Source: a virus. Taken from it: 64,000 bases of DNA. The DNA lies in IMG/VR virus record IMGVR_UViG_3300009159_000050, positions 1-64,000 of that record; one strand, 5' to 3'. A model generated the notes under the pieces. It was not told the DNA's origin, made no database searches, and saw only the letters and a program-made list of their open reading frames with translations. Positions 25,017 to 49,270 of this stretch are shown piece after piece. A program made the translations under genes and the position numbers. Each line of letters begins with the position of its first letter. Position 1 is the stretch's first letter.

Positions 25017-25090
25017 GCGACAGTAGCTTAGTTGGTTAAAGCCCCAAACTCATAATTTGGTAATCGTAGGTTCAAGTCCTACCTGTCGCA
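25017..25090 (+). tRNA. tRNA-Met (CAT)
   Basis: Acceptor GCGACAG/CTGTCGC, anticodon stem CCAAA/TTTGG with loop CTCATAA, T-arm GTAGG/CCTAC. CAT could mean Met or, if modified to lysidine, Ile. No CCA encoded. Confidence 0.9.
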
Positions 25091-25094
25091 CTCT

Positions 25095-25168
25095 GCACCA
25101 GTAGCCAAGTTGGTGAAGGCGTCAGTCTTATATACTGAAGATCGTAGGTTCAAGTCCTGCCTGGTGTA
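25095..25168 (+). tRNA. tRNA-Ile (TAT), CCA encoded
   Basis: Acceptor GCACCAG/CTGGTGT, anticodon stem TCAGT/ACTGA with loop CTTATAT (anticodon TAT, reading AUA), T-arm GTAGG/CCTGC. CCA follows at 25169-25171, unlike the neighbours. Confidence 0.85.
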
Positions 25169-25172
25169 CCAA

Positions 25173-25244
25173 GTCTCTGTAACTCAGCGGAAGAGTAGTA
25201 CCCTTCTAAGGTAAAGGTCGTAGGTTCAAATCCTACCAGGGACG
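25173..25244 (+). tRNA. tRNA-Arg (TCT)
   Basis: Acceptor GTCTCTG/CAGGGAC, anticodon loop CTTCTAA (TCT, reading AGA), T-arm GTAGG/CCTAC. The top pair of the anticodon stem is mismatched. No CCA. Confidence 0.85.
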
Positions 25245-25287
25245 CAGAGAGATGCTATAATGTAATGAAAGTAAAAGGGGTGTTGCG

Positions 25288-26244
25288 TTGGCTAAAATTG
25301 TTTTTCTTGGAAACTTTGAAGTTTCATATAGCAGTGAGAATCATCACGCTAAAAGTTTAGAATCTCTTGGACATACCGTTGTAAAGTTGCAAGAAAAAAA
25401 GGCAAAGACCCATGTAATTCTTGATCAGGCACTTGACTCTGATCTATTTATTTGGGTTCATACTCATGGCTGGGAAACAGTTGGCAAGATCACAATGGAC
25501 GATGTTCTGCTCAGACTAAAGAGTGCTGGAATACCAACAATGACATACCACCTTGACCTATGGTTTGGTCTTGAAAGACAAAAGGATCTTGAACAAGATA
25601 ACTTTTATAAAACCATTGGTCACTTCTTTACAGTAGATAAGCTAATGGCTGATTGGTTTAATGAAAATACAGAGGTCAAAGGACATTTCGTTCCTGCAGG
25701 GGTATACGATAAGGAATGCTACATTCACCCAGATTATGACACACAAAACTTTAAGTATGATGTTATTTTTGTTGGCAGCAAAGGATATCATCATGAGCAT
25801 AAGTATCGTCCAGAATTAATTGATTTCTTAAGAAAGACATACGGAAAAAGATTTCTACATGTTGGTGGAGATGGTGATACTGGAACTGTTCGTGGTGATG
25901 AATTAAATAAGATCTATGCACAAAGCAAAGTAGCTGTAGGAGATAGCCTTAACATTAACTTTAACTATCCTTACTATACTAGTGATAGGTTGTTTGAAAG
26001 TACTGGTCGTGGTGGTTTTACCATATACCCAGAAATTAAAGGACTAGATGAATACTTTATGCCTGATGAAGTAGTATTTTACAATCATGGAAATTTAGAT
26101 GACCTAAAAAACAAAATAGATCATTACCTTGAGAATTCTTTAGTAAGAGAAAGAATTAGATTAAATGGACACAATCGCACAAAGAAAGAGCACACCTATG
26201 TGCATCGTTGGGAAACTATTATGAATGAGTTAGGAATAAAATGA
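25288..26244 (+). CDS. CgeB-like glycosyltransferase, 318 aa, TTG start
   Basis: Begins at TTG 25288 after AAAGGGG; an ATG at 25265 is in another frame. IVFLGNFEVSYSSENHH at the start, HLDLWFG near 95, then YDVIFVGSKGYHHE and a C-terminal SDRLFESTGRGGF match the CgeB/DUF3880-type GT-B transferases. TATAAT is at 25256-25261. It opens an operon of nine overlapping genes to 32163 that likely builds or alters a surface glycan. Confidence 0.8.
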   Translation: MAKIVFLGNFEVSYSSENHHAKSLESLGHTVVKLQEKKAKTHVILDQALDSDLFIWVHTHGWETVGKITMDDVLLRLKSAGIPTMTYHLDLWFGLERQKDLEQDNFYKTIGHFFTVDKLMADWFNENTEVKGHFVPAGVYDKECYIHPDYDTQNFKYDVIFVGSKGYHHEHKYRPELIDFLRKTYGKRFLHVGGDGDTGTVRGDELNKIYAQSKVAVGDSLNINFNYPYYTSDRLFESTGRGGFTIYPEIKGLDEYFMPDEVVFYNHGNLDDLKNKIDHYLENSLVRERIRLNGHNRTKKEHTYVHRWETIMNELGIK

Positions 26245-27170
26245 AAAGTATAGCAATAACAGGTGCAACTGGACTATTAGGTTCACACTTATCAAACCAC
26301 TACCTATCACTAGGCTATAATGTTTTTGTTCTATTAAAAGACGAGCATAGTCGCACAGAACTTTCTCCAAATGTAAACAAGGTTTATGGAAGTATTAATA
26401 ATAAAACAGACATTGATTTTTTTATAGAAAAGTCAAGACCAGATTACTTTATCCATCTTGCAGCACAGACTCAGGCATATGACTCAATCAAGTATCCATA
26501 CAATACTTTTTATACCAATCTTGTTGGTACATTGAATGTACTTGAATCATTAAGAGAATACAAAAATTGCAAGTCAATCATTGTTGCTTCTAGCGATAAA
26601 GCCTACGGGGAGTTAGTAAATGATGAATACTTTGAAGATCATATTCTTAATGGCATATATCCATATGATGCATCCAAAACTATTACAGACATAATGTGTA
26701 ATTCATATAGGAATACATATGATATGCCTGTTGTAACTACCCGTGCCTGCAACATTTATGGAACTGGTGACAATAATATTCAAAGATTGGTGCCTGGAGT
26801 TGTGAAGGCTTATAAGGATGGCGCATTGTTTACTATCAGAAATGGTGGTAGAGATATTAGAGAATACATTAATGTTAAGGATGTTGTTTCAGCATACGCT
26901 AACATACTTACATATGCAGAAACAGTTAATAATATTCCATCCTTTAACATATCCTCTGGTGAAAGATATTCTACACTTGAAGTATTTAACCTTATCCAAG
27001 ACTCAATTGGTAAAGAAGTTAAGCATGAGATCATTGAGAGTGATGGATTTGAAATTAAAAAACAGTTTATGAACTCATCTTTGCTACAAGAAAAAACTGG
27101 ATGGAAGTCGGAGCATACTATGAAAGACAGTATGAAAGAAATAGTTGATTTTTATATGGAGTCTAAATGA
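26241..27170 (+). CDS. NAD-dependent sugar epimerase/dehydratase, 309 aa
   Basis: Extended SDR: GATGLLGSH (8-16) binds NAD; IHLAAQTQ, ASSDKAYGE and YPYDASK (catalytic Tyr and Lys) follow, then RACNIYGTGD. SSDKAYGE and PYDASK are most like CDP-glucose 4,6-dehydratases, so a nucleotide-sugar 4,6-dehydratase is the best guess. ATGA overlap with the gene before. Confidence 0.85.
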   Translation: MKSIAITGATGLLGSHLSNHYLSLGYNVFVLLKDEHSRTELSPNVNKVYGSINNKTDIDFFIEKSRPDYFIHLAAQTQAYDSIKYPYNTFYTNLVGTLNVLESLREYKNCKSIIVASSDKAYGELVNDEYFEDHILNGIYPYDASKTITDIMCNSYRNTYDMPVVTTRACNIYGTGDNNIQRLVPGVVKAYKDGALFTIRNGGRDIREYINVKDVVSAYANILTYAETVNNIPSFNISSGERYSTLEVFNLIQDSIGKEVKHEIIESDGFEIKKQFMNSSLLQEKTGWKSEHTMKDSMKEIVDFYMESK

Positions 27171-27676
27171 ATATAAATTTTGGTTGCGGTAGCATTCAGC
27201 CTTCTGACTGGACTAATATAGATCTTGATCCAGAGTTTAATACCGAGCATAGAGACTTAGAACTGATACCCGATAGCTCTTGTGACATTCTTGTTTGTCA
27301 TGCAATAGTTTGCTGTGTTAAATATCACGACATTGAAAAGGTATTGTTAGAATTTTATAGAGTACTAAAACCAGGAGGAGTTGTAAGGATTAGCCTTCCA
27401 GATATTGTTTCTGGGTTTGATGCATATAAAAATAATAATATTAATTTCTTTCCTAATTCTGAAGATGATTTGGATAAGCGTTTCTCTGCATGGCTAACTT
27501 GGTATTCACAATCAGCATCTCTGCTAACAGATAAAGCGCTACAATATAAACTACAGGATTGTGGGTTTAACTTTGTATCAAAAACAGAGTTTAAACAAAC
27601 AGTATATTCAAATGAAAAAATTTATGAACTTGATACAAGGGAACATGAATTCTATTTTGTGGAGGCAAAAAAATGA
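27167..27676 (+). CDS. SAM-dependent methyltransferase, 169 aa
   Basis: FGCGSIQPSDWTNIDLD (SAM-binding loop and following acidic strand) and RVLKPGGVVRISLPD are typical of short class I methyltransferases (COG4627-like) in glycan clusters. Overlaps neighbours on both sides. Confidence 0.8.
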   Translation: MNINFGCGSIQPSDWTNIDLDPEFNTEHRDLELIPDSSCDILVCHAIVCCVKYHDIEKVLLEFYRVLKPGGVVRISLPDIVSGFDAYKNNNINFFPNSEDDLDKRFSAWLTWYSQSASLLTDKALQYKLQDCGFNFVSKTEFKQTVYSNEKIYELDTREHEFYFVEAKK

Positions 27677-28380
27677 CAGAGATGGTTAAGACAATACTAA
27701 ATGGAGAATTTGAAATAATTCTTCCAAAGCATCGTGCAGAGAGACCAGAGTGGCACACAGAAGCAGGTTGGGAAAAGTTAAGGCTTAAATCAATGCACAA
27801 TAACATTGGTAAGGGCGATGTTGTTTATTATGTTGGTGCAGAAGAAGGTGAGTTTCCAGCGCTTTGTCAAATGTGGGGAGCAGAAGTTGTATTGTTTGAA
27901 CCTAATCCTAAAGTATGGTCACACCTTCCACAAACTTGGAAATCAAATAACTTAGAACTTCCAATGGCATGCATTCCTGGATTTGCTTCTGATAAAGTAA
28001 ATGAGCTTGCAAGAATTTATTATAATGAATGGCCTCCAGAGGCTGATGACGTTATTGAAGCAGCACATGGATTTAAAGAATTATACCTTGAAGGTGATTC
28101 ATATGGTCAAATTACTATAGATTCTTGTGTATATGATCACGGTATTAAGCCACCTACCGCCATTTCATTAGACGTAGAGGGTAGCGAATGGAGGGTCCTA
28201 GGAGGGGCTGAGAGTGTCCTTAAACAGTATAAGCCTAAGATTTGGCTATCTGGACACCCTGAATTTATGTTACAGCAATGGGATGAATCCTTATATAATC
28301 TTAGACAATGGATAAAAAATTTAGGATATAAAGAAAAATTGCTTGATTACCAACACGAAGTTCATTTGTTCTATGAGTAG
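27673..28380 (+). CDS. FkbM-like methyltransferase, 235 aa
   Basis: VYYVGAEEGEFPALCQMWG (SAM motif I), VVLFEPNP and a late SLDVEGSEW match the FkbM family, which methylates sugar hydroxyls. In the same operon as sugar-modifying genes. Confidence 0.8.
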   Translation: MTEMVKTILNGEFEIILPKHRAERPEWHTEAGWEKLRLKSMHNNIGKGDVVYYVGAEEGEFPALCQMWGAEVVLFEPNPKVWSHLPQTWKSNNLELPMACIPGFASDKVNELARIYYNEWPPEADDVIEAAHGFKELYLEGDSYGQITIDSCVYDHGIKPPTAISLDVEGSEWRVLGGAESVLKQYKPKIWLSGHPEFMLQQWDESLYNLRQWIKNLGYKEKLLDYQHEVHLFYE

Positions 28381-29536
28381 TCTTATATTTTGTTCACATA
28401 CAGATGATGGAATTTTTTCTTTAGGAGATTACATCCTTGATAGTAGTGATGATTTTACAATTGCATCTGCATTTGCTGGCATACCAACAGATGATGCTGG
28501 ATATAAAAAACACACTACATTAAGAAAAGAACATGACGAAGCCTGTTCTATGGTAAATGCTAAAGTTATTAATGGAGATCTATTAGATGATGTTTATGGA
28601 AAACAAAATGAAGATGATTTAATAAATTGGATAAAAAGTATAATTGTAGATTTTGATAATATATATATTCCACTAGGAATTCATCATCCAGACCACGTAT
28701 TTTTATCAGATACTTTATTTAATTTAATGAAGCATTTTGATAAAAAATATTTTGTATATGCTGAGTTGCCATATAAATTGTCATATCAGGATTTATATGA
28801 AACAAGATTAAAAATTTTTACATCACTTTGTGGTTTAAAAAAAACTAACACCAATTTTACAAAAAACAAAATTGATGCAATAAAAAAATATGATTCACAA
28901 ATAAAATACGCAAGCGATCCATCTTGCATAGATGAAGAATTATTTGCACAACTTATTGTAGAAGAAGAAGTATGGGAAGTTTCAATATTAGATCATGCTA
29001 AGGTTTTTTGGGACAATGCTGCAAAAGATGTAGATGTAAAGTATAAATATATTGCAGATGAATGGGCACCTAGTGAAAAATTTTTAACTCTTATAGAGGA
29101 CAGCAATAGTAATTGGAATAATGTTTTAGAAATTGGATGTGGATTAGGAAGGCTGCTCGTTCCTCTTGCAGAGAAATATAATGAATGCAACTTTTACGGA
29201 ATAGACATATCTGATGAAATGATTAAGCTTGCACCTAAGAAAGATAATATAAAGTATCAAGAACTTGCAGACAATCTTGATCTTGTGTACTCAATTCTAG
29301 TCTTTCAGCATATTGACCACCAAGAAAAAATTAAATATATAAAACTTGCTTATGAAAAATTAAAAGTTGGTGGTATTTTATTCTTTCAGTTTGTTGTTGG
29401 AGAAGAGAATTCTGCATACTCTTATCAAACATCAAGGTTTGAAATTAACAGAATATTAAGTGATGTAGGATTTAAAAACTTAATCTTTACAGATCATATG
29501 CATCCTAAATGGATGTTTGTTAGGGCTACAAAATGA
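28373..29536 (+). CDS. PIG-L/LmbE deacetylase fused to methyltransferase, 387 aa
   Basis: Residues 1-190: SLIFCSHTDDGIFSLG corresponds to the LmbE metal motif (H-x-D-D) and PLGIHHPDH to its second His motif. Residues about 205-387: VLEIGCGLGRLLVPLAE (SAM motif I) and LKVGGILFFQF of a class I methyltransferase. The start at 28373 overlaps the previous stop. Predicted to remove an N-acyl group from a sugar and then methylate it. Confidence 0.75.
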   Translation: MSSLIFCSHTDDGIFSLGDYILDSSDDFTIASAFAGIPTDDAGYKKHTTLRKEHDEACSMVNAKVINGDLLDDVYGKQNEDDLINWIKSIIVDFDNIYIPLGIHHPDHVFLSDTLFNLMKHFDKKYFVYAELPYKLSYQDLYETRLKIFTSLCGLKKTNTNFTKNKIDAIKKYDSQIKYASDPSCIDEELFAQLIVEEEVWEVSILDHAKVFWDNAAKDVDVKYKYIADEWAPSEKFLTLIEDSNSNWNNVLEIGCGLGRLLVPLAEKYNECNFYGIDISDEMIKLAPKKDNIKYQELADNLDLVYSILVFQHIDHQEKIKYIKLAYEKLKVGGILFFQFVVGEENSAYSYQTSRFEINRILSDVGFKNLIFTDHMHPKWMFVRATK

Positions 29537-30381
29537 TAAAAGCATATCTTCTTTCTTTTAATAAAAATGATTGTGCTGCCGATAAGTGGGACTATGGCCT
29601 ATTAAAAGAAATTTTTACTAAGTATGATATAGAAGAAATTAAAGTTACATCTTTGCCAAAAGAAGAACGTGCTTTTGTTATTGTTCCTGGACCACAAAAT
29701 CTTGGACATGAAAAATATATTAATAAAGAAATACAAAATATATCAAGGCTTGTTTTATTTATTAATGGAGATGAGCAAGGTAGTTTTGATATAACAAAGA
29801 TTAATCATCCTAATGCTGAGATATGGGTTCAATACCCCTATGAACAACACAAACATTTAAATAAACTACCAATAGGTGTTCCACAACATCTAAAGAAGTT
29901 GGTACCAGATTATCCGTCAAAAGACTATGAAGTATATTTTAGTGGTCAAATAACACATCCAAGAAGACAACAGATAGCAAAGGTTATGCCAGACATGCCA
30001 AATGCCCTTTTTACCCTTACAGCAGGCTTTGCACAGGGCGGAGAACCTAAAGACTACTATAAGTCCTTGTCCAGTGCTAAGATCGCTCCTGCGCCTGCTG
30101 GGGCCGCAACGATTGACACCTTTAGATTCTTTGAGGCTATAGAGATGCTATGCCTGCCAATTTCAGATAGTGTAGACTCTAAGGGAAATAGTAGAAATTT
30201 CTATCAAGATGTATTTGGCTATGATATACCTGTTAGAAGTGTTACTGATTGGTCTGAGCTACATGAGCTAGTTCCAGAGTTGTTAAATAATTACCCTGAA
30301 AATATGCATACTGTAGTATCCTGGTGGATTAAATATAAGAGAGACTTAGGCATTAAGATTATGAGGCAAGTGAATGAATAA
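29533..30381 (+). CDS. Exostosin-like glycosyltransferase, 282 aa
   Basis: YFSGQITHPRRQ, then SSAKIAPAPAG-ATIDTFRFFEAIEMLCLPI match the C-terminal GT-B half of exostosin/GT47-like enzymes. ATGA overlap in the operon. Donor sugar unknown. Confidence 0.7.
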   Translation: MIKAYLLSFNKNDCAADKWDYGLLKEIFTKYDIEEIKVTSLPKEERAFVIVPGPQNLGHEKYINKEIQNISRLVLFINGDEQGSFDITKINHPNAEIWVQYPYEQHKHLNKLPIGVPQHLKKLVPDYPSKDYEVYFSGQITHPRRQQIAKVMPDMPNALFTLTAGFAQGGEPKDYYKSLSSAKIAPAPAGAATIDTFRFFEAIEMLCLPISDSVDSKGNSRNFYQDVFGYDIPVRSVTDWSELHELVPELLNNYPENMHTVVSWWIKYKRDLGIKIMRQVNE

Positions 30382-31135
30382 AAAAGATATAACAATTATA
30401 CTTGCAACATCTATAATACCAGCCCATCCAAATACTGAAATGATAGATGAAACCATTAAGTCTATTAGGGTACACTTTCCAGAAAATGAAATCATTATGC
30501 AAATTGATGGTTTAAGAAAAGAACAAACACACAGGAAACCAGATTATGATGAGTACAAGAATAGAATTCTTTGGAAATGTTTACATGAGTATAAAAATGT
30601 ATTGCCAATAATCTTTGACAAACATAGTCATCAAACCACAATGATGCGTAATACTATTGATGAAATCCAAACACCACTTATGATTTATGTTGAGGGTGAT
30701 GCTCCATTAACACCAGATGTGCCGATTGATTGGGAAAGGTGTATTGATCTTATTGAACAAAAACGGGCTAACACAATTCGTTTTCATCATGAAGCAACAA
30801 TACCAGAACCACATAATCATTTAATGCTTGGACTTGAAGATGGCTTCATGAAAACATCTCAATGGAGTCAAAGACCTCACTTAAGTACTGTAAAATATTA
30901 TAAAGATGTTGTCTTACCTTTCTGTAAACCAATAAGTTTTATTGAAGATAGATTTCACGGTAAGGTTCAAGATGATATTTTTCCTTACGATAGTTTTAGT
31001 CAGGAAGGTTGGGACACACATAAACTTTGGATCTATCATCCTGAAGGAAATATAAAACGATCTTATCATTTAGATGGTCGTGATGGTACAAGAAAGTTTA
31101 CACAGGATGATGATACTTGGGGATATACAGAGTGA
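30374..31135 (+). CDS. GT-A-like glycosyltransferase, 253 aa
   Basis: ITIILATSIIPAHPNTEMID at the start and MIYVEGDAPL in the middle (a DxD-like acidic site) fit a GT-A fold. A later His-rich and FIEDRFHGKVQDD segment is typical of such phage/bacterial transferases. Donor and acceptor unknown. Confidence 0.6.
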   Translation: MNKKDITIILATSIIPAHPNTEMIDETIKSIRVHFPENEIIMQIDGLRKEQTHRKPDYDEYKNRILWKCLHEYKNVLPIIFDKHSHQTTMMRNTIDEIQTPLMIYVEGDAPLTPDVPIDWERCIDLIEQKRANTIRFHHEATIPEPHNHLMLGLEDGFMKTSQWSQRPHLSTVKYYKDVVLPFCKPISFIEDRFHGKVQDDIFPYDSFSQEGWDTHKLWIYHPEGNIKRSYHLDGRDGTRKFTQDDDTWGYTE

Positions 31136-32163
31136 CATTTGGAATAATTGCAAGATGTGATAATAGTGGATTGGGCAATCAGACAAGAGATCTGGTTAAA
31201 ATGCTAAATCCAGATAAGATTCTTTTAATTAATTCCTCAAGCTTCAACAATAATAAACAATATCCTGAGTGGTATGATGGCTATAACGTAATAATGACAG
31301 ATGGTTTTCCAACTAAACAAGAGGTTTCTAGATTTATGGATGGACTAAATTCTGTACTTACATGCGAAACCTTTTACCATCCACATTTTATTCACCTTTC
31401 ACAGAGACGTAACGTTAAAACGTTGATGCAGTATAACTATGAGTTTCTTGATCATTTAAATAGACCAGATATGCCTTTGCCAACCTATATGATTGCCCCT
31501 AGTTATTGGAAGATAGATGAGGTTATTAGTAAGTTTAGTAATGATACCAATGTTATTCATTTACCGCCGCCGATTGACTCATCTGAGTTTGCTTCTGTAA
31601 GAGATAATAATCTTGGAAAAGATCATAAAAGAATTCTTCATATTGGTGGCAAGGCAGCTTCTCAGGATAGGAATGGCACTCAAACTGTTATTGATATGCT
31701 TGAGCATTCAACAGCTGACTATGAGTTAGTTGTTAGAAGTCAAACGGAACTTAAAGTTAATTGCAAAGATCCCAGACTTACTATTGACATAAGCGATAAT
31801 GATAGCAGGTCTTCAATGTATGAGGGCTTTGACGCTATGGTTCTTCCAAGAAGATATGCTGGCTTATGCTTGCCAATGAATGAGGCGCTTATGAGTGGTC
31901 TACCAGTCTTTATGACTGACATATCACCAAATAATGAAATTCTTCCAAACGATTGGCTAATTCCTTCAAGAAAAATAAACACACTTATGACAAGAGTTAA
32001 ATTAGATGTATATGAGGCTGATCCCAAACAGCTTGCTAAAAGAATTGATAACTATGTTAACAGTGATAAAAAAGCAGAAAAAGAAAAAGCTGCAACTATT
32101 GGGTTTGAAAACTTTGATCCATCTATTCTAAAGAATCAATACCTTCGGATTCTGGAAGGATAA
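31132..32163 (+). CDS. GT-B glycosyltransferase (group 1-like), 343 aa, GTG start
   Basis: GTG overlaps the previous TGA. IARCDNSGLGNQTRDLV at the start, HIGGKAASQDRNGTQ in the middle and DAMVLPRRYAGLCLPMNEAL at the C-terminus are the donor-binding parts of group-1 GT-B enzymes. Last gene of the operon; its end overlaps the convergent gene by 41 bases. Confidence 0.8.
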   Translation: MTFGIIARCDNSGLGNQTRDLVKMLNPDKILLINSSSFNNNKQYPEWYDGYNVIMTDGFPTKQEVSRFMDGLNSVLTCETFYHPHFIHLSQRRNVKTLMQYNYEFLDHLNRPDMPLPTYMIAPSYWKIDEVISKFSNDTNVIHLPPPIDSSEFASVRDNNLGKDHKRILHIGGKAASQDRNGTQTVIDMLEHSTADYELVVRSQTELKVNCKDPRLTIDISDNDSRSSMYEGFDAMVLPRRYAGLCLPMNEALMSGLPVFMTDISPNNEILPNDWLIPSRKINTLMTRVKLDVYEADPKQLAKRIDNYVNSDKKAEKEKAATIGFENFDPSILKNQYLRILEG

Positions 32164-35157: not shown

Positions 35158-35414
35158 ATCTCACCCCATTTTTCTTTTGTCCTGTGCTTACCAAACTCCC
35201 GTGATATTTCACCATTCTCTAAGTATATACCACCCCAGACACCCCACTCTTTGCTAGATACACCGTTAGCAAAACATATTTTTTGAACTGGACATGATTG
35301 GCATAGGCTGTCTATCATTGGTCTAATAAGCTCATCGTCCTCATACCTGTCAAAAAATAAGTTTGTATCTGAGCCAAAACAAGCACTTTTATCTTTCCAT
35401 AAGTGTTGCTCCAT
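35127..35414 (-). CDS. whiB: WhiB-family transcription factor, 95 aa
   Basis: Four Cys in WhiB spacing (ACFGSD, LCQSCPVQKIC) hold a 4Fe-4S cluster and GVWGGIYL is the G-V/I-WGG turn that contacts the sigma factor. The C-terminus has basic residues (KHRTKEKW) for DNA. WhiB proteins are restricted to Actinobacteria and their phages, where they can redirect host RNA polymerase or block host WhiB. Confidence 0.92.
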   Translation of the reverse strand: MEQHLWKDKSACFGSDTNLFFDRYEDDELIRPMIDSLCQSCPVQKICFANGVSSKEWGVWGGIYLENGEISREFGKHRTKEKWGEMWKSLTTEKT

Positions 35415-39102: not shown

Positions 39103-39723
39103 TTACCTATCCTGGAGAAATGTAACTATGGCATATTTGGTTCCAGATTCTACTGGATGAGCAATATGTCCATATGCATAGTTTGATGGGAAAAGCATTA
39201 GTGTTCCAGCTTTAGGTTTAATTTTTATCTTAAAGTTAGGGAACTCAATTTCACCACCAGTATAGTCATCATTTAAATATATTAAAACAGAAATACTTCT
39301 CTTGCTTTCAGTATCTCCGTCATAGTGATACTTATACTCTTCTCCGCTAGAATATTTTAAAAGACTGTAAGGCTCAACGTCTTTAATGTCTGCCTCTATT
39401 TTGAACATACCTTTATAGTTATGCACTGCTGAAGATATTAACTCATAGGATCTATTGTTTATTTGTCTAAATACTTCATTAGATCTTGCAGCCTTTGTTA
39501 TATATAACCCAGAACTTGTCCTAATTGACTGAACAGTACCGCTTCCAGACTGCATATCTCCATTTGTCTGTGATGGAATAAATCTAACATTTGAATCAAT
39601 GTCAGAAGTAAGCTCTAAAACTTCACTAATTGTTTTTTCGTGATCCGTCCAGACACCCTCATAAACAGCTATAGCCCCTCCAACAACGTATGTCGGATTT
39701 ATTGGAAATGAGTTTATATACAT
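39103..39723 (-). CDS. 2OG-Fe(II) oxygenase (prolyl-4-hydroxylase-like), 206 aa
   Basis: YHYDGD (H-x-D iron ligands), VLIYLNDDYTGGEIEF and a late YGHIAHPVESGTKYAIVTF with the distal His and 2-oxoglutarate Lys/Arg give a complete P4H-like core. It overlaps the DUF2061 gene by one base. Substrate unknown; related phage enzymes may hydroxylate virion or host proteins. Confidence 0.8.
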   Translation of the reverse strand: MYINSFPINPTYVVGGAIAVYEGVWTDHEKTISEVLELTSDIDSNVRFIPSQTNGDMQSGSGTVQSIRTSSGLYITKAARSNEVFRQINNRSYELISSAVHNYKGMFKIEADIKDVEPYSLLKYSSGEEYKYHYDGDTESKRSISVLIYLNDDYTGGEIEFPNFKIKIKPKAGTLMLFPSNYAYGHIAHPVESGTKYAIVTFLQDR

Positions 39724-41896: not shown

Positions 41897-42487
41897 CTAA
41901 ACAATTAATTCTTTGTCAACTGGTATAGAAAGTATCCATGTAGGTAAACAATAACGAACCTTATCTCCACTTACAGTTTTTACTTCATGAAGATATTTTT
42001 CTCCAGTTTTAAATATCATTAGTGAGCCAGAAGATGGTTTAATTTTTATATTAAGGTTTACAAATGACAGTTCTCCACCTTCATAATCATCATTTAAATA
42101 AATAACAGTTGCGTAATCTTTATTTAAATTATTAAAAGCATCATATGTTTCATCTATATGAGCATTCATATTATCTTCAGGGCGCTGTCTAAGAATTCTA
42201 CCTAGGCCATGAATTATAGAACCTGGTATAAGAAATAAAAGTTTATTAAATTTATCTCTAGCCATAGCTGCTATGTGTTCATTGTTGTAGTCATAAAACT
42301 TGTTATTCCAGTCTAAAGATTGAAAGTTGTTTAACTTTGTCCAGTCTTCTTCTGAAGTCTTATCTATAATGTTAGTAAATATCTCTAACTCATCCTTAGA
42401 TAAAAAATTTGGAATATAAAATATGTTATCCTCAAGTTTTTCAACATCTATAAATCCACATTGATCAAGAAGCTCTAAACTTATCAT
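41897..42487 (-). CDS. 2OG-Fe(II) oxygenase-like protein, 196 aa
   Basis: AHIDET (H-x-D), VIYLNDDYEGGELSF, LMIFKTGEKYLHEV with the distal His. The core around YLNDDY-GGE is very close to that of the 39103 product, so the two are paralogues. The N-terminal half (about 1-100) differs. Confidence 0.75.
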   Translation of the reverse strand: MISLELLDQCGFIDVEKLEDNIFYIPNFLSKDELEIFTNIIDKTSEEDWTKLNNFQSLDWNNKFYDYNNEHIAAMARDKFNKLLFLIPGSIIHGLGRILRQRPEDNMNAHIDETYDAFNNLNKDYATVIYLNDDYEGGELSFVNLNIKIKPSSGSLMIFKTGEKYLHEVKTVSGDKVRYCLPTWILSIPVDKELIV

Positions 42488-43011
42488 TATAAACTAACCA
42501 CATCTACTGGACCCATGCAGGATGGGCTAAATCTAATTGCTGCAGATACCGCAGATACTACACGGTTTCTTGCATTCTTTTGCTTATCTGTTGCATACAA
42601 AACTCCATAAGCATACTCAGCTCCAGAACCCATAGACAAATATGGCAGGGTATACTTAGATAAAGACATATCAGCAGAACTATGCTCATATATCTCACCA
42701 CGAATAGCAATAATTAAACCAAGGTCTCCATCTTTAGATGTATCAACCCAGAACTCATTATAAAATTCACGAAGCTCTTTGATAAACCTAGTCTGCATAA
42801 ACTTATCAGTATCTTTAATGTTTGGGGGTGTTGGTTTAAAGTTATAACGGATTCTTTCTCCGTCCATTGATCCAGCATACCCAATGAGATAAGGGCCTAT
42901 CTTCCAAACCTTTGGAGCATCAAGTGCTAATATAGTTCCATCATCTGAGGCACCACGATCTCCAGCCATGTAGATTTTATCTTCATGCTTTAACACAACA
43001 ATACAGGTCAT
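42487..43011 (-). CDS. Proteasome-beta/HslV-like Ntn hydrolase, 174 aa
   Basis: Thr2 after the initiator Met (TCIVVLKHED) is positioned as the catalytic nucleophile; GDRGAS carries the usual Asp and APKVWKIG the usual Lys of proteasome-type proteases. Later SMGSGAEYAYGVLYA fits the GSG turn. Self-processing is not needed because Thr follows Met. May form a peptidase ring; role in infection unknown. Confidence 0.7.
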   Translation of the reverse strand: MTCIVVLKHEDKIYMAGDRGASDDGTILALDAPKVWKIGPYLIGYAGSMDGERIRYNFKPTPPNIKDTDKFMQTRFIKELREFYNEFWVDTSKDGDLGLIIAIRGEIYEHSSADMSLSKYTLPYLSMGSGAEYAYGVLYATDKQKNARNRVVSAVSAAIRFSPSCMGPVDVVSL

Positions 43012-43373: not shown

Positions 43374-43561
43374 TATTCATCTCCATATTCTTTATTTCTA
43401 ATAGGACTAGTTAGTATCCAAAGTGTGGTAGTGGCTATAATTCCATAACCAACAATAGTCTTTGCGCTACCGTCCAGAACAACCCAGGCAATAAACATTC
43501 CAAGAAGAGTCCATGCCTGATCTACTAGGTCTTTCATTATATTTTTTACTATTCTTACCAT
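43373..43561 (-). CDS. Small membrane protein, 62 aa
   Basis: Two spans (AWTLLGMFIAWVVLDG; IVGYGIIATTTLWILT). Single-base overlap with the holin-like gene. Possible holin partner; same type of pair as other actinophages. Confidence 0.55.
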   Translation of the reverse strand: MVRIVKNIMKDLVDQAWTLLGMFIAWVVLDGSAKTIVGYGIIATTTLWILTSPIRNKEYGDE

Positions 43562-45645
43562 TTTCTTCCTCCTCTTGAACCTGGTGAATTGCTGCCTGAA
43601 CTTCCACCAGAATTTCCTCCACCACCAGAGCCTCCTGCTGCTCCTCCTGCTGATGCAACTGCTGCTGCATTAATCGCTGCTCCTGTTGCCACAACTGTTG
43701 CTACAACCATATCTGTTGCCTCTTCTCTTTCTCCTTCAGTCATGTCTGCACCAATACTCCCAAAGGCTGCAAGTGCTGCGCCTGGATCAGTAAATACCGC
43801 GTTTAATAACGCTCCTGGATCTTGAACCAATTCTACATTTGCTGCAACCTCTGCTGTAATTATTAACACCTCGCCAGACTCAGATGTTCTAAGTTCAATG
43901 GGGGTTTCTGGTGGAAGGTCTGCATATGAAACTCCAGATGCTTGGACCTCTGCTGCAGAAATAGATTCTCCTGGCTTAAGGTCTTCTATTAATGCTGCTA
44001 CTACAATTTCTTTTTGTTCTTTAGTTAATTCTTTACCATCTTTAGCATCTTCAATTATTTCTTTTAATTCTTTTTCTTCTGCTTTTGCTTCTTCTTCCGC
44101 AGCCTTTTCTTCTTCTAATTCTTTTGCTTTGGCTTCTTCAGCAATTCTTTTTTCTTCTGCAAGGGCTTCAGCCTCTGCTTCTGCCTTTGCTTTTGCAATG
44201 GCCTCTTCTTCTGCTGCTATACGCTCAGCCTCTGCTTCTGCTTCGGCAATCGCTCTTTCTTCTTCCGCTATACGCTCTGCTTCTATACGATCAGCCTCTG
44301 CCTTAGCCTCTGCTTCTGCTTTTTCTTCTGCTGCTTTAATTTCTGCTGCAATGCGATCTTCTTCTGCCTTGGCCTCTATCTCTGCTTGTATTCTCGCTGC
44401 TTCAATCTCTGCTTCTATACGATCAGCCTCTGCCTTAGCCTCTGCTTCTGCCTTAATTCTTTCTGCTTCTTGTGCTGCTTGAAGTGCTGCAATTCTTTCT
44501 GCTTCTGCTTGAGCGGCTGCTGCTTGCTGTGCAATTAATGCTGCTGTCTCAGCCTGTATTCTTGCTGCTTCTGCTTGCTGTGCTGCTAATTGGGCTGCAA
44601 CAGATGCTGCAATTTCTGCTTCAGTTGGTCCAGTTGGTATTGTCACTGTTGATGTTTCACTGGGCGTAGGTGTTGTTACTGTTGTAGTTTCGCTAGGTGT
44701 TGTAACTGTTGTTGTTTCAGGTGCTGGTGTTGTTACGGTTGCTGTTTCAGAGGGAGTAGGAGTCGGAGTAGGTGAAGGCTCTGGAGCAGGGGCTACATAT
44801 GTAGAACCAGTAACAACATTTGAATTTGCAGAGTAAAGGGCAAAGGTATCGTTATCTGATCTAATGTGAAATGACCAGACTGTTCCTGCTGGCATAAGTC
44901 CATTTAGCAAGGAATGATCAATTGTAATTGTTGTATTTAAAGAGTTTGGTCCGCCAACATTTCCAGTAGCAATTCCCCAACCATTACATCCAGAACAATT
45001 AAAACTTATTGCATATCTTTCTGGTTGTGTGTTACCAGTGTCGGGTGCTTCCCAATTTAATATTGTTGAGGTTTCTCCGCTAATTATTGTTAAATTTCTT
45101 GGAGGTCCTATTGTTTTTACTACTGGTGCTGCTTGTGAGGTAAAGGCTTCTGCTGGAATAACTTGCATTGACCCAGACTGATTCCATAATAGTTGAACCC
45201 AAGCACCGCCACCATTCTCGTAGTACATTAACTCTATAGTTTTTGGTATTCCTGCTGTAAATGCTACTGGAGAAGAAGTTGTTCCTCCACCACCTTTATC
45301 TCGCCAGTCACTTGTTATTAAAACTCCATCAAGATAAAGCTTAGTTCCATCATCTGCTGTTGCTAAAAATGATATATCTTGAGTTGTGTTACTACGAATA
45401 GACCCAGTAAATCTTACAATCACATCTTCTGAAGGGCCCCCAAGGACACTACCACTACCCCACTGAAAGTTAATGTTGGATACATTTGTAGTTACTACTG
45501 GGGAGGCTCCCTGCGGTATGTAAGGAGCGCCATTTTGTCCCAGCACGTTATATACTTGAGCAGTCAAACCTTCTGCTGCGTGGGCTTTATCAATTATTAA
45601 AAGCAGGGGAAATAGAGCAAGGGATAAAACCAATGCTACTCTCAA
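43555..45645 (-). CDS. Secreted PA14/Fn3-like protein with TolA-like helix, 696 aa
   Basis: Signal peptide 1-23 (cleaved near AHA). PA14-like sugar-binding domain about 24-172 (FQWGSGSVLGG, FLATADDGTKLYLDG, YYENGGGAWVQLLW). Fn3-like domain about 178-275. Pro/Thr linker about 280-340. A very long Ala/Glu-rich helix of about 200 residues (342-560), like TolA or tail tape coils. C-terminal Gly/Ser-rich basic region. This looks like a host-surface or virion-decorating protein that reaches out and binds glycans. Confidence 0.7.
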   Translation of the reverse strand: MRVALVLSLALFPLLLIIDKAHAAEGLTAQVYNVLGQNGAPYIPQGASPVVTTNVSNINFQWGSGSVLGGPSEDVIVRFTGSIRSNTTQDISFLATADDGTKLYLDGVLITSDWRDKGGGGTTSSPVAFTAGIPKTIELMYYENGGGAWVQLLWNQSGSMQVIPAEAFTSQAAPVVKTIGPPRNLTIISGETSTILNWEAPDTGNTQPERYAISFNCSGCNGWGIATGNVGGPNSLNTTITIDHSLLNGLMPAGTVWSFHIRSDNDTFALYSANSNVVTGSTYVAPAPEPSPTPTPTPSETATVTTPAPETTTVTTPSETTTVTTPTPSETSTVTIPTGPTEAEIAASVAAQLAAQQAEAARIQAETAALIAQQAAAAQAEAERIAALQAAQEAERIKAEAEAKAEADRIEAEIEAARIQAEIEAKAEEDRIAAEIKAAEEKAEAEAKAEADRIEAERIAEEERAIAEAEAEAERIAAEEEAIAKAKAEAEAEALAEEKRIAEEAKAKELEEEKAAEEEAKAEEKELKEIIEDAKDGKELTKEQKEIVVAALIEDLKPGESISAAEVQASGVSYADLPPETPIELRTSESGEVLIITAEVAANVELVQDPGALLNAVFTDPGAALAAFGSIGADMTEGEREEATDMVVATVVATGAAINAAAVASAGGAAGGSGGGGNSGGSSGSNSPGSRGGRKW

Positions 45646-45722: not shown

Positions 45723-45757
45723 AAAAAAGAGGGCCAGCACTAAGACTGACCCTCTTA
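45723..45757 (-). terminator. Intrinsic terminator on minus strand
   Basis: AAGAGGGTCAG/CTGGCCCTCTT stem with one mismatch and 7-10-base loop, then TTTT on the minus strand, after the S-layer-like gene. Confidence 0.8.
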
Positions 45758-45768
45758 TTGTTAAGCTA

Positions 45769-47475
45769 TTAAGCTTTTACCTTCTTGGCAATCTTTGCAA
45801 CTACTGCTGCAAGTGATTTAATTTGTGCCTGAAGTCCAGCAATTAACTTAGTTACAGACTCTGAAAGTGCTGCAACTGCGTCTGATGCTGCTTGTGCTGC
45901 TGTTGTTGCAGCATCTGCTGCTTCTGCTGCTGCGAGAGCTGCATCTGTTGCTGCATTGGCTGCATCAACCGCTTCTTTTGCTGCGTCTGATGCTGCTTTC
46001 TGAGCAGAATCTTCAACAAGTACCTCTGCAGAAACTACAACTTGACCTGCTACTGGAAGAGATGATCCACCAGTTGCTGTGACCTTAATTGTATTTTGTA
46101 CAAGTGGCATAAAGACCTTGTAGGTCTTAACTGTTGCTGTATCTGTTGTTACAGAAGTCGCTGTTAGTACATCAGATGCTGATCCAAATGCATAGTTAGA
46201 AACAATTCCACCTGTAGCAAATAGATTAGAGTGTGTCTTACCAGACAATGGAAGACCTGCTGCATCTAGAACTTGAACTGTAATAATTGCTGCTTCTCCT
46301 GGAAGGTACTGAGCCTTATCAAAAGACAACTTAACAGTTGCTGCTGCACCCTCTACACGAGTTGCAACTGGTGCAGATGATACTGCCCCTGACTTAACAG
46401 TTACAGCAACTCCGCCTGTCTTAACTCCTGTAAGAGTAAACATTGCTTCACCATTTACGATTGTTGCTGCAGTTCCTGAATCGGATACCACTGAAACATC
46501 GCTTGAGAAAGCATTAAGTGTTCCTGCTCCAACTGTTACTCCAGCAGCATCATATGCTATTGCCTTAATTGTTGAAACATTTGATCCCACTGGGATAACA
46601 GGCTTAACTGTTGTTGCTACGATAGATGCGATATCTCCGTAGAATGTTACCTTCTCAGTTGCAAGAACTACACCTGTAAGTGTTGTAAGAGTAATTGTTG
46701 ATACTCCTGCTGTACCGTCAGCAAATACACCAATATGGTTTCCTGAAGCAATTACCAATGAGCGACCTTGTGCTGAAATTGATGTTGCGTTTGATCCGCC
46801 ACCAATCATTCCTGAACCTGAAACTGTTGCAAGAATTGACTCAGTTGCTGATCCCCCTGCTGCATTCTTAGGTGTAACAACAATTACTGCTGCTGCATCT
46901 GCTGAAGTAGCCTTTGGAGCATAAACTGTAGCATCTGCGGTTGCAGTTGTTACTTCACCAGCATTAAGGATAGATGTCGTAGTTGAAGCAGATGGAGTTA
47001 GATCCGCTGCCTTAACTGTTACTGTCCACGAAACTGATGGCCCATTGATTGGGCTTGTTGTTAGAATCTTTGCATCATATGTGCCTGCAACCGTTGGTGC
47101 ATTCAAAGTTACCAAGAACTTTGCTGTTACATATGTTGGTGTGTTAACTGTTGAGTTAACGTTTGCTGAAACATTATTTCCTGCAATAACTACTGAGGAT
47201 GTTGATGTTTCTAGAAGTGATAAGGTTGCAGACTTTGCTGCCCCTGTTGGCTGAGAAAACATAGCAGAGATAATTGTTGCTGTATCTGCTGATGTTTCTG
47301 AAATAAACGACAATGTTACTACTGCTGTGGCAGACTCACCAGTTGTCACAGCATCTGTTGCTGAGTCAATCGTTAGAGTTGGTGCGTTTACAGCAGCACT
47401 TGTCGGAAGTGCTGATAGTACGCCAAAAGACATTGCTGCAGCTAGTCCTAAAGCGATTTTCTTAAATGAATTCAC
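45769..47475 (-). CDS. S-layer-like secreted surface protein, 568 aa
   Basis: Signal peptide 1-27 (KKIALGLAAAMSFGVLSALP). The body is beta-rich, Ala/Ser/Thr/Val-dominated, with Ig-like repeats. The C-terminus is an Ala-rich helix (about 495-568) of DAA/ADAA repeats ending in a Lys-rich helix. This composition and layout resemble secreted surface-layer proteins of freshwater acI-type Actinobacteria. It is followed by a strong terminator, as for a highly expressed gene. No SLH or anchor motif is visible. Confidence 0.6.
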   Translation of the reverse strand: MNSFKKIALGLAAAMSFGVLSALPTSAAVNAPTLTIDSATDAVTTGESATAVVTLSFISETSADTATIISAMFSQPTGAAKSATLSLLETSTSSVVIAGNNVSANVNSTVNTPTYVTAKFLVTLNAPTVAGTYDAKILTTSPINGPSVSWTVTVKAADLTPSASTTTSILNAGEVTTATADATVYAPKATSADAAAVIVVTPKNAAGGSATESILATVSGSGMIGGGSNATSISAQGRSLVIASGNHIGVFADGTAGVSTITLTTLTGVVLATEKVTFYGDIASIVATTVKPVIPVGSNVSTIKAIAYDAAGVTVGAGTLNAFSSDVSVVSDSGTAATIVNGEAMFTLTGVKTGGVAVTVKSGAVSSAPVATRVEGAAATVKLSFDKAQYLPGEAAIITVQVLDAAGLPLSGKTHSNLFATGGIVSNYAFGSASDVLTATSVTTDTATVKTYKVFMPLVQNTIKVTATGGSSLPVAGQVVVSAEVLVEDSAQKAASDAAKEAVDAANAATDAALAAAEAADAATTAAQAASDAVAALSESVTKLIAGLQAQIKSLAAVVAKIAKKVKA

Positions 47476-47488
47476 TTACTTCTCCTTA

Positions 47489-49270
47489 TTATATTAGTTT
47501 TAAATTGTCAAGAAAATCCTTGACATCTTCAGGCATTTGCCTGTCTTCCAATTCTACCATAGCTCTTTGTTGTCTTGCAAGTTTATCACTTGTTCCCCAG
47601 GTATGGATCTCTATTTCAATATCTATATCCTTTGGGGTGTGAGAGATGGCACCAAAAACAGCACCACAAACAGCATCTGCCAAGTCTTTGGATTTCTTTC
47701 TAGGGTGATCAACACGATTGCCCTTCATAATCTTCAACTCTGACATTTCTTCCAAGAGTAATGGAATCATTGGCATAGCAACACGCTCTTCATAGATCAT
47801 CATTGCTAAATCTTCGTAGTGTTTTTTTGCAACAGAAACAGTATCAGTTCTTATTCCTACTGCTTTAAGCTCTTGCTGAATATCAAATGATTGCCAACGG
47901 TCAAAAGAAACCATTCCTATATTAAACCCTTGTCTTCTAAGGTTTTGAATCCACTGCTTAACCTGAGATAGATCAACTGGTCCTTCTGATCTTGGTTCCC
48001 ACCATGCTACTGCATCTACTATTACGATAGGTGCTACCTGTTCATAGTCTTTAATTACCTGGATATTTACCCACTTATCTACGTGAGCAATTGCTACCGC
48101 ACACTTATCGTGCTTTTGTGCAAGGTCAGCATGAACATAATAAATTTTATCTGGGTCTGGTTTAAAGTTTTCTGCAAACCTTCTAAAGCTATCAACTGGA
48201 TTTGTTAATGTCATACAGCTAATCAGTTTATCTTTTTGTTTAAAAAAGGCATCGGAGGAATATGTTGGTGTGCAAAGAAAACGCATCATTGCATCTCCTA
48301 GGTCTGTTAAGAATGCAATCTTGAAGTCATCAATTTTACGTGTAGGATTTACATCCCAGGTTGGACGCTTTAGTGCAAATATCTTAGGAATTTTATATGA
48401 AAGGATATTATCTTCATCCCATGATATTTCAAAATTGTTGTCTGGATTATCATGTGGTAGATCTTCATTAATAATAAATTTGTGTGTTTTTTCTATTACC
48501 TCTTTGTCGGCGATTACTGAATCATACCGTTGAGAAATAAAGTCACCTGGATAACGAGGGAATGAAAGAAGAACAACCTTCCCAAGATCAGGGAAACGAG
48601 AATCTACAGTACCACGAAAAGCTTTATAGATATTATCAGCAGTCTTACCCTGTTCATTTCCTGTTGCTACCTCTGATGCAAAACCAGAAATTTCATCAAG
48701 AACAGCCATGAACAGGTTCAAACCTTCATGTGACTCACGCTCAGAGTGACCAGAATAAACAGTGATTGATTTATCAAACTCAATTGAGTCTGCTTTTGGA
48801 TTATACTTTCCTGCAAACCACGGTGATCTTTCAATCTTTGATTTAAAACCTTTAAAGAAAACATTTTTTGCCTGTTGAGCATTGACTGCAACGTTAATAA
48901 TATCAATGGCATCTCCTGCAGGCTTTCCATAATAGATTGCAGGATCTTTAAGACATAACATTTTATATACTACATATGCACACGATACTGTTGATACGAA
49001 GTCTTTTCCAGATCCCTTGCCAAGTTGCAGGATAAGCTCATTCTTTGTATATTTTTTATAGTACTCTTCCCCTGCGTCACCCATTATATCAATAACATCT
49101 TCTTTACGATAAATCTGGCTCATGGCTTCTACAATTGTATATTGAATATCAGATAAAGGTGGTTGCCCAAGATAGTCTGGAGACTCAACAAATGTCTTTG
49201 CATCAACAGGCTTCTCAACAAAATGATTTTCTTTTAAAACTTCCAAGAAATCATTGAACGTCGTGGACAA
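47489..49270 (-). CDS. terL: Terminase large subunit, 593 aa
   Basis: ATPase domain: LQLGKGSGKDF (about 81-91) Walker A-like and LFMAVLDEIS (about 186-195) Walker B, with FPRYPGDF coupling-type motif later. RNase H-like nuclease domain: YYVHADLAQKHDKCAVAIAH (about 378-397) and C-terminal KDLADAVCGA. Packages DNA at the portal. Confidence 0.9.
   Translation of the reverse strand: MSTTFNDFLEVLKENHFVEKPVDAKTFVESPDYLGQPPLSDIQYTIVEAMSQIYRKEDVIDIMGDAGEEYYKKYTKNELILQLGKGSGKDFVSTVSCAYVVYKMLCLKDPAIYYGKPAGDAIDIINVAVNAQQAKNVFFKGFKSKIERSPWFAGKYNPKADSIEFDKSITVYSGHSERESHEGLNLFMAVLDEISGFASEVATGNEQGKTADNIYKAFRGTVDSRFPDLGKVVLLSFPRYPGDFISQRYDSVIADKEVIEKTHKFIINEDLPHDNPDNNFEISWDEDNILSYKIPKIFALKRPTWDVNPTRKIDDFKIAFLTDLGDAMMRFLCTPTYSSDAFFKQKDKLISCMTLTNPVDSFRRFAENFKPDPDKIYYVHADLAQKHDKCAVAIAHVDKWVNIQVIKDYEQVAPIVIVDAVAWWEPRSEGPVDLSQVKQWIQNLRRQGFNIGMVSFDRWQSFDIQQELKAVGIRTDTVSVAKKHYEDLAMMIYEERVAMPMIPLLLEEMSELKIMKGNRVDHPRKKSKDLADAVCGAVFGAISHTPKDIDIEIEIHTWGTSDKLARQQRAMVELEDRQMPEDVKDFLDNLKLI

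What the first reader, a model, noticed from the sequence alone, without database searches (positions are those of the whole stretch)
45769..47475. Phage gene for an S-layer-like host surface protein
A full signal peptide, Ig-like beta body and an Ala-rich helix with Lys end, plus a strong terminator, look like a host surface protein rather than a virion part. The phage may coat the infected cell or its own particle with a host-like surface, for superinfection exclusion or disguise.
Basis: partly seen in the sequence, partly recalled or inferred. Interest (0 to 1): 0.72.

Follow-up and report, generated by a model that had tools for sequence, protein, structure and literature searches.

The report
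Swappable exported stalk protein in actinophages
The gene encodes an exported Ig-domain-plus-coiled-coil protein, and it occupies a fixed slot beside the packaging gene where related freshwater actinobacterial phages keep the signal peptide and basic tail but swap the protein's body, as expected for a factor that acts on the infected cell's surface.

Summary
The ORF is real: 568 aa, with a Shine-Dalgarno site, a 12-pair terminator, a signal peptide, about four Ig-like domains, a 78-residue heptad helix and a basic end. The larger finding is the slot. In phages chosen only by TerL, 78 of 78 with sequence past terL have there, 11-47 nt downstream, a gene starting MNSFKK or nearly so. Two body families (T0; T1 with remote T2) share no detectable homology beyond residue ~36 yet keep one architecture: signal peptide, Ig head, long helix, tail of about +6. 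DNA homology to a TerL-95% relative stops inside the signal peptide and resumes at the terminator. Body identity does not track TerL identity (rho -0.01; neighbouring TerS-like gene 0.60). A second variable exported protein usually follows. No relative turned up in named phage genomes or, in a motif-limited scan, in 84,980 cellular species. Codon usage is phage-like. "Exported surface protein, not a virion part" fits the evidence. "Host-like" is not supported, and "S-layer" holds only at fold level. Best explanation, inferred: late coating or receptor-masking of the infected cell and its debris against competitors or self-adsorption. Never tested. Host unknown; WhiB supports Actinobacteria.

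The parts
45769..47475 (-). slot-1 gene (body type T1): exported Ig-head and coiled-coil protein, 568 aa, GTG start
47482..47487 (-). Shine-Dalgarno AAGGAG, 6 nt before the GTG
   Evidence: read from sequence
47389..47475 (-). signal peptide, residues 1-29; 5' edge of the swapped cassette
46015..47388 (-). body, residues 30-487: about four Ig-like beta domains
45772..46014 (-). C-terminal helix, residues 488-568: Ala-rich heptad stalk and basic end (KIAKKVKA)
45727..45756 (-). intrinsic terminator, 12-pair stem; DNA homology resumes here (45741) after the swapped cassette
47489..49270 (-). terL, terminase large subunit; fixed upstream neighbour of the slot
43555..45645 (-). slot-2 gene: second exported protein (PA14, Fn3-like, Ala/Glu coiled coil), also variable among relatives

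Best explanation
This is slot 1 of a two-gene late cassette, between terL and the lysis genes, that makes exported stalked proteins. Shown by sequence or model: the protein carries a Sec-type signal peptide, has an Ig-domain head, a long heptad helix and a conserved strongly basic C-terminus, and is read just after terL up to a terminator; relatives exchange the part between signal peptide and terminator. Inferred: after export it oligomerises through the helix, is held on the envelope by the basic tail (anionic polymers or membrane), and displays a variable head. Inferred further: by coating or masking receptors late in infection it stops competing phages from superinfecting, or stops released progeny from being lost on the dying cell and its debris. 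Head swapping would reflect an arms race with competing phages' adhesins or with changing host receptors.
For: A signal-peptide gene lies at the slot in 78 of 78 TerL-selected loci. Body families T0 and T1 share only residues 1-36 by profile but share architecture in two models. DNA breakpoints fall at the signal peptide (window 47424) and at the terminator (45741) against L214. Body identity is uncorrelated with TerL identity (rho -0.01, n=990 pairs) while the TerS-like neighbour gives 0.60. T1 bodies carry either of two tail types. All tails are basic (mean +5.5 to +6.7). Heptad periodicity of the Ala-rich part p<0.0005 by shuffling. Fold resembles surface adhesins and S-layer Ig domains. 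Long records carry one full-length slot-1 protein each. The slot-2 protein is also exported. T5 Llp shows that a lytic phage can encode an exported exclusion protein and why (PMC9586334).
Against: No functional data. Ig folds are common on virions too. No LPXTG, lipobox or clear anchor was found, so surface retention is inferred. Superinfection-exclusion genes are usually early; this one lies with late genes, though timing was not measured. The helix as an oligomer was not modelled.
Confidence: 0.42

Rival explanations
1. Secreted adhesin or matrix protein: it makes infected cells stick to each other or to surfaces, or shields them from grazers, rather than blocking phage receptors.
For: Best structural matches are bacterial adhesins FdeC, LigA, intimin, invasin; the slot-2 partner has a PA14 domain, often glycan-binding.
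Against: A fold match says little about ligand; no reason why a lytic phage's late operon would need it; none tested.
Confidence: 0.2
2. Virion-associated protein that joins particles only after lysis or at the envelope, for example a decoration or host-binding fibre; the signal peptide is then incidental or exploited.
For: Ig-like domains occur in many phage structural proteins; codon usage groups with structural genes.
Against: Signal peptide conserved in all slot-1 genes; tail module lies at 64-90 kb; no PHROG match.
Confidence: 0.13
3. True phage-encoded S-layer: it assembles a two-dimensional lattice on the infected cell.
For: Foldseek ranks S-layer chains (7ptp, SbsC, Sap, EA1) high.
Against: Adhesins, complement C3 and nuclear pore chains rank equally; no SLH or other S-layer anchor seen.
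Confidence: 0.1
4. Cell-wall or lysis accessory: it aids envelope disruption together with the neighbouring holin-like and CHAP endolysin genes.
For: Position just upstream of the lysis genes.
Against: No catalytic domain; the same gene is also found away from that position (L040); a hypervariable body is unlike lysis genes.
Confidence: 0.08

Closest known systems
Phage T5 Llp (superinfection-exclusion lipoprotein)
   Same: Encoded by a lytic phage, exported, proposed use: stop superinfection and loss of progeny on debris (PMC9586334)
   Different: Llp is a small lipoprotein of a Gram-negative envelope; here a large Ig and coiled-coil protein without lipobox
Bacterial Ig-like adhesins FdeC, intimin, invasin, LigA (Big_1)
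   Same: Tandem Ig-like domains, best structural matches; weak Big_1 sequence match in 25 of 57 relatives
   Different: No outer-membrane beta barrel; anchor, if any, is at the C-terminus; low identity (15-20%)
S-layer proteins SbsC, Sap, EA1
   Same: Ig-like domain rods, exported
   Different: No SLH or known anchor, mostly single-domain matches, phage gene
Putative S-layer-type Gene_23 of Methylophilales phage Melnitz
   Same: Proposed in the literature as a phage surface protein against superinfection (PMC9004378)
   Different: Different phage group and host phylum; not compared in sequence here; no swapping slot reported in the passage read

Membership tests
Bacterial Ig-like adhesin (Big_1, intimin/invasin type) | tandem Ig-like domains | tested here: met
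   model and fold match; weak Pfam Big_1 matches
Bacterial Ig-like adhesin (Big_1, intimin/invasin type) | N-terminal outer-membrane beta barrel or LysM anchor | tested here: not met
   no such domain in the 568 aa; helix at C-terminus instead
S-layer protein | SLH or other known cell-wall anchor domain | tested here: not met
   no Pfam or NCBIfam match; S-layers with other anchors are not excluded
S-layer protein | two-dimensional lattice on the cell | not testable with these tools
   needs imaging
Exported superinfection-exclusion protein (Llp-like in function) | export signal | tested here: met
   conserved signal peptide
Exported superinfection-exclusion protein (Llp-like in function) | blocks adsorption or DNA entry of phage | not testable with these tools
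   needs an assay
Phage tail or virion protein | sequence relation to tail families or place in tail module | tested here: not met
   0 PHROG families up to E 1; tail genes at 64-90 kb

The most novel reading that the evidence does not exclude
A large group of lytic freshwater actinophages carries a dedicated, universal locus for exchangeable exported heads: a fixed signal peptide and basic stalk form a display chassis, and unrelated Ig-like heads are swapped like serotypes, defining exclusion groups among co-occurring phages, with a second slot reassorting independently.
Probability: 0.3. Interest if true: 0.8.

Novelty: new variant of a known kind. Interest (0 to 1): 0.6.

Why it matters
If right, phages of abundant freshwater Actinobacteria fight over infected cells with swappable surface proteins, and the allele at one sequenced locus would predict which phages exclude which. 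That makes competition among phages in lakes testable from metagenomes. It also names a family of exported phage proteins that the libraries searched here do not contain.

Tried and rejected
Pfam 'PhosphMutase' match to the target (E 0.036, below cut-off): chance. Host origin: two-motif scan of genome contigs gave no relative, and the signal-peptide pattern gave 7 cellular hits, none actinobacterial; both scans are motif-limited and can miss distant relatives, and the cellular kin of a virus record could not be searched. Named-phage search with T1, T0 and T2 proteins: no match. Covariation with the last tail gene (879 aa): only the near-identical record has it, so no test was possible. A DGR-like template repeat: none, only coiled-coil repeats and a repeat between the two 2OG oxygenase genes. 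Signal-peptide conservation as a DNA-level effect: third-base identity for shared amino acids is 0.64 against 0.59 in TerL, so selection acts mainly on the protein. Positive selection inside alleles: dN/dS 0.11-0.33, so purifying. Literature: no paper found on this slot; Ghai 2017 not held.

Full report
Observation. The ORF at 45769-47475 on the minus strand is real: 568 aa from a GTG with AAGGAG six bases upstream, 13 nt after the terL stop. It ends before a 12-pair terminator (-20.5 kcal/mol, z -4.65). The N-terminus is a Sec-type signal peptide (judged by eye and by conservation; no SignalP was available). AlphaFold2 gives an all-beta body at 33-487 and a single helix at 490-567 (pLDDT 79, pTM 0.50). 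Structural matches are Ig-like surface proteins: FdeC Z 13.9 over 283 residues with high rmsd (several domains), SbsC domains Z 11.8 at 2.7 A over 92 residues, LigA, intimin, invasin. Foldseek ranks S-layer chains high, but also complement C3 and nuclear pore chains, so the fold does not single out S-layers. Big_1 matches 25 of 57 relatives at E<0.1.

Setting. The record is an 89,966-base virus contig. It encodes a WhiB protein (35226-35399), its TerL is 52% identical to Streptomyces Stanwilliamsviridae, and its RecA, Cas4, RuvC and terL order matches them. In Genie2 terL is followed by an HNH gene, not an exported protein. An actinobacterial host is therefore likely; acI in particular is not shown. 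Tail genes lie at 64-90 kb. The target lies between terL and holin-like, HslV-like and CHAP endolysin genes.

The slot. I collected 80 viral loci by TerL similarity alone. Of these, 78 continue past terL, and all 78 carry a gene 11-47 nt downstream on the same strand starting MNSFKK, or a close variant such as MNSFKR, MNSFQK or MNSLKK. The 50 complete non-redundant ones are 34 T0, 8 T1 (the target's type) and 8 T2. T2 is remotely related to T1 (about 27% identity). T0 and T1 profiles align only over residues 1-36 (E 9e-10). T0 still predicts as Ig head plus 94-residue helix (pLDDT 85). Tails differ in sequence (WNxKNPKAKV, KIQKKVKA, INKQIxxLQK, CPxGYKKK) but all are basic, and 13 T1 proteins carry the tail typical of T0. 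A terminator-like hairpin follows the gene in 108 of 113 loci.

Exchange. Against L214 (TerL 95% identical, T0 body) DNA homology runs from terL to window 47424, inside the signal peptide, stops, and resumes at 45741 in the terminator, continuing through slot 2 at 79%. L216 shows the same kind of edges (47455, 45741). Among TerL-selected pairs, body identity does not follow TerL identity (rho -0.01) while the TerS-like gene does (rho 0.60); type is conserved only above about 97% TerL identity. Within T1, dS to close relatives is lower than in terL (0.14-0.17 against 0.35-0.66), and for L078 higher (0.66 against 0.35). This fits recent allele exchange, although codon bias may lower dS in part. 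A 95%-identical T1 protein also occurs in a different gene context (L003, L009, L011, L040), in L040 beside a secreted protein with a weak metalloprotease-like match.

Origin. Motif-limited scans found no cellular relative, and codon usage matches the phage's structural genes. The claim of a host-like surface is therefore not supported, but a deep search of acI proteomes was out of reach.

Function. Shown by sequence or model: export signal, architecture, slot, exchange. Inferred: envelope retention by the basic coiled-coil tail, head display, and a role in blocking adsorption. T5 Llp is a precedent for the purpose, not for the protein (PMC9586334); a putative S-layer-type gene of phage Melnitz was given the same speculative role (PMC9004378). 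Grazing defence or adhesion, virion association and lysis help are rivals. The exchange of heads argues for a surface arms race but does not identify the partner.

Limits. T-type counts come from the loci closest to this TerL and from motif scans, so frequencies apply to this group only. Start codons were set to the motif when present in frame. Several of the 78 genes are cut by contig ends, so only their N-terminus is seen. Two structure models are monomers.

Noticed in passing
43555-45645 (-): Slot-2 exported protein: signal peptide, PA14, Fn3-like region and long Ala/Glu coiled coil; in relatives the following gene also usually has a hydrophobic export-like N-terminus and is variable (57 of 82 of 200 aa or more).
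   Followed up: partly
L040 7416-11557 and L003, L009, L011: Near-identical T1 protein in a different phage context, followed in L040 by a secreted protein with a weak metalloprotease-like match.
   Followed up: partly
L099, L126, L133, L228: Slot-1 variants ending in a cysteine-containing CPxGYKKK tail, unlike the cysteine-free T0 and T1 proteins.
   Followed up: no
39103-39723 and 41897-42487 (-): Two 2OG-Fe(II) oxygenase genes that share a 92-nt repeat at 72% identity.
   Followed up: no
42487-43011 (-): HslV/proteasome-like peptidase gene next to the lysis genes, conserved in relatives.
   Followed up: no
25288-32163 (+): A run of large plus-strand genes directly downstream of a three-tRNA cluster (25017-25245); some look like sugar or glycan enzymes by eye, not searched.
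   Followed up: no
G000:C1:64067-66706 (L084): The last tail-module gene (879 aa) has a match in only 1 of 20 related records (the near-identical one); records may be incomplete, but a possible adhesin here looks highly variable.
   Followed up: partly
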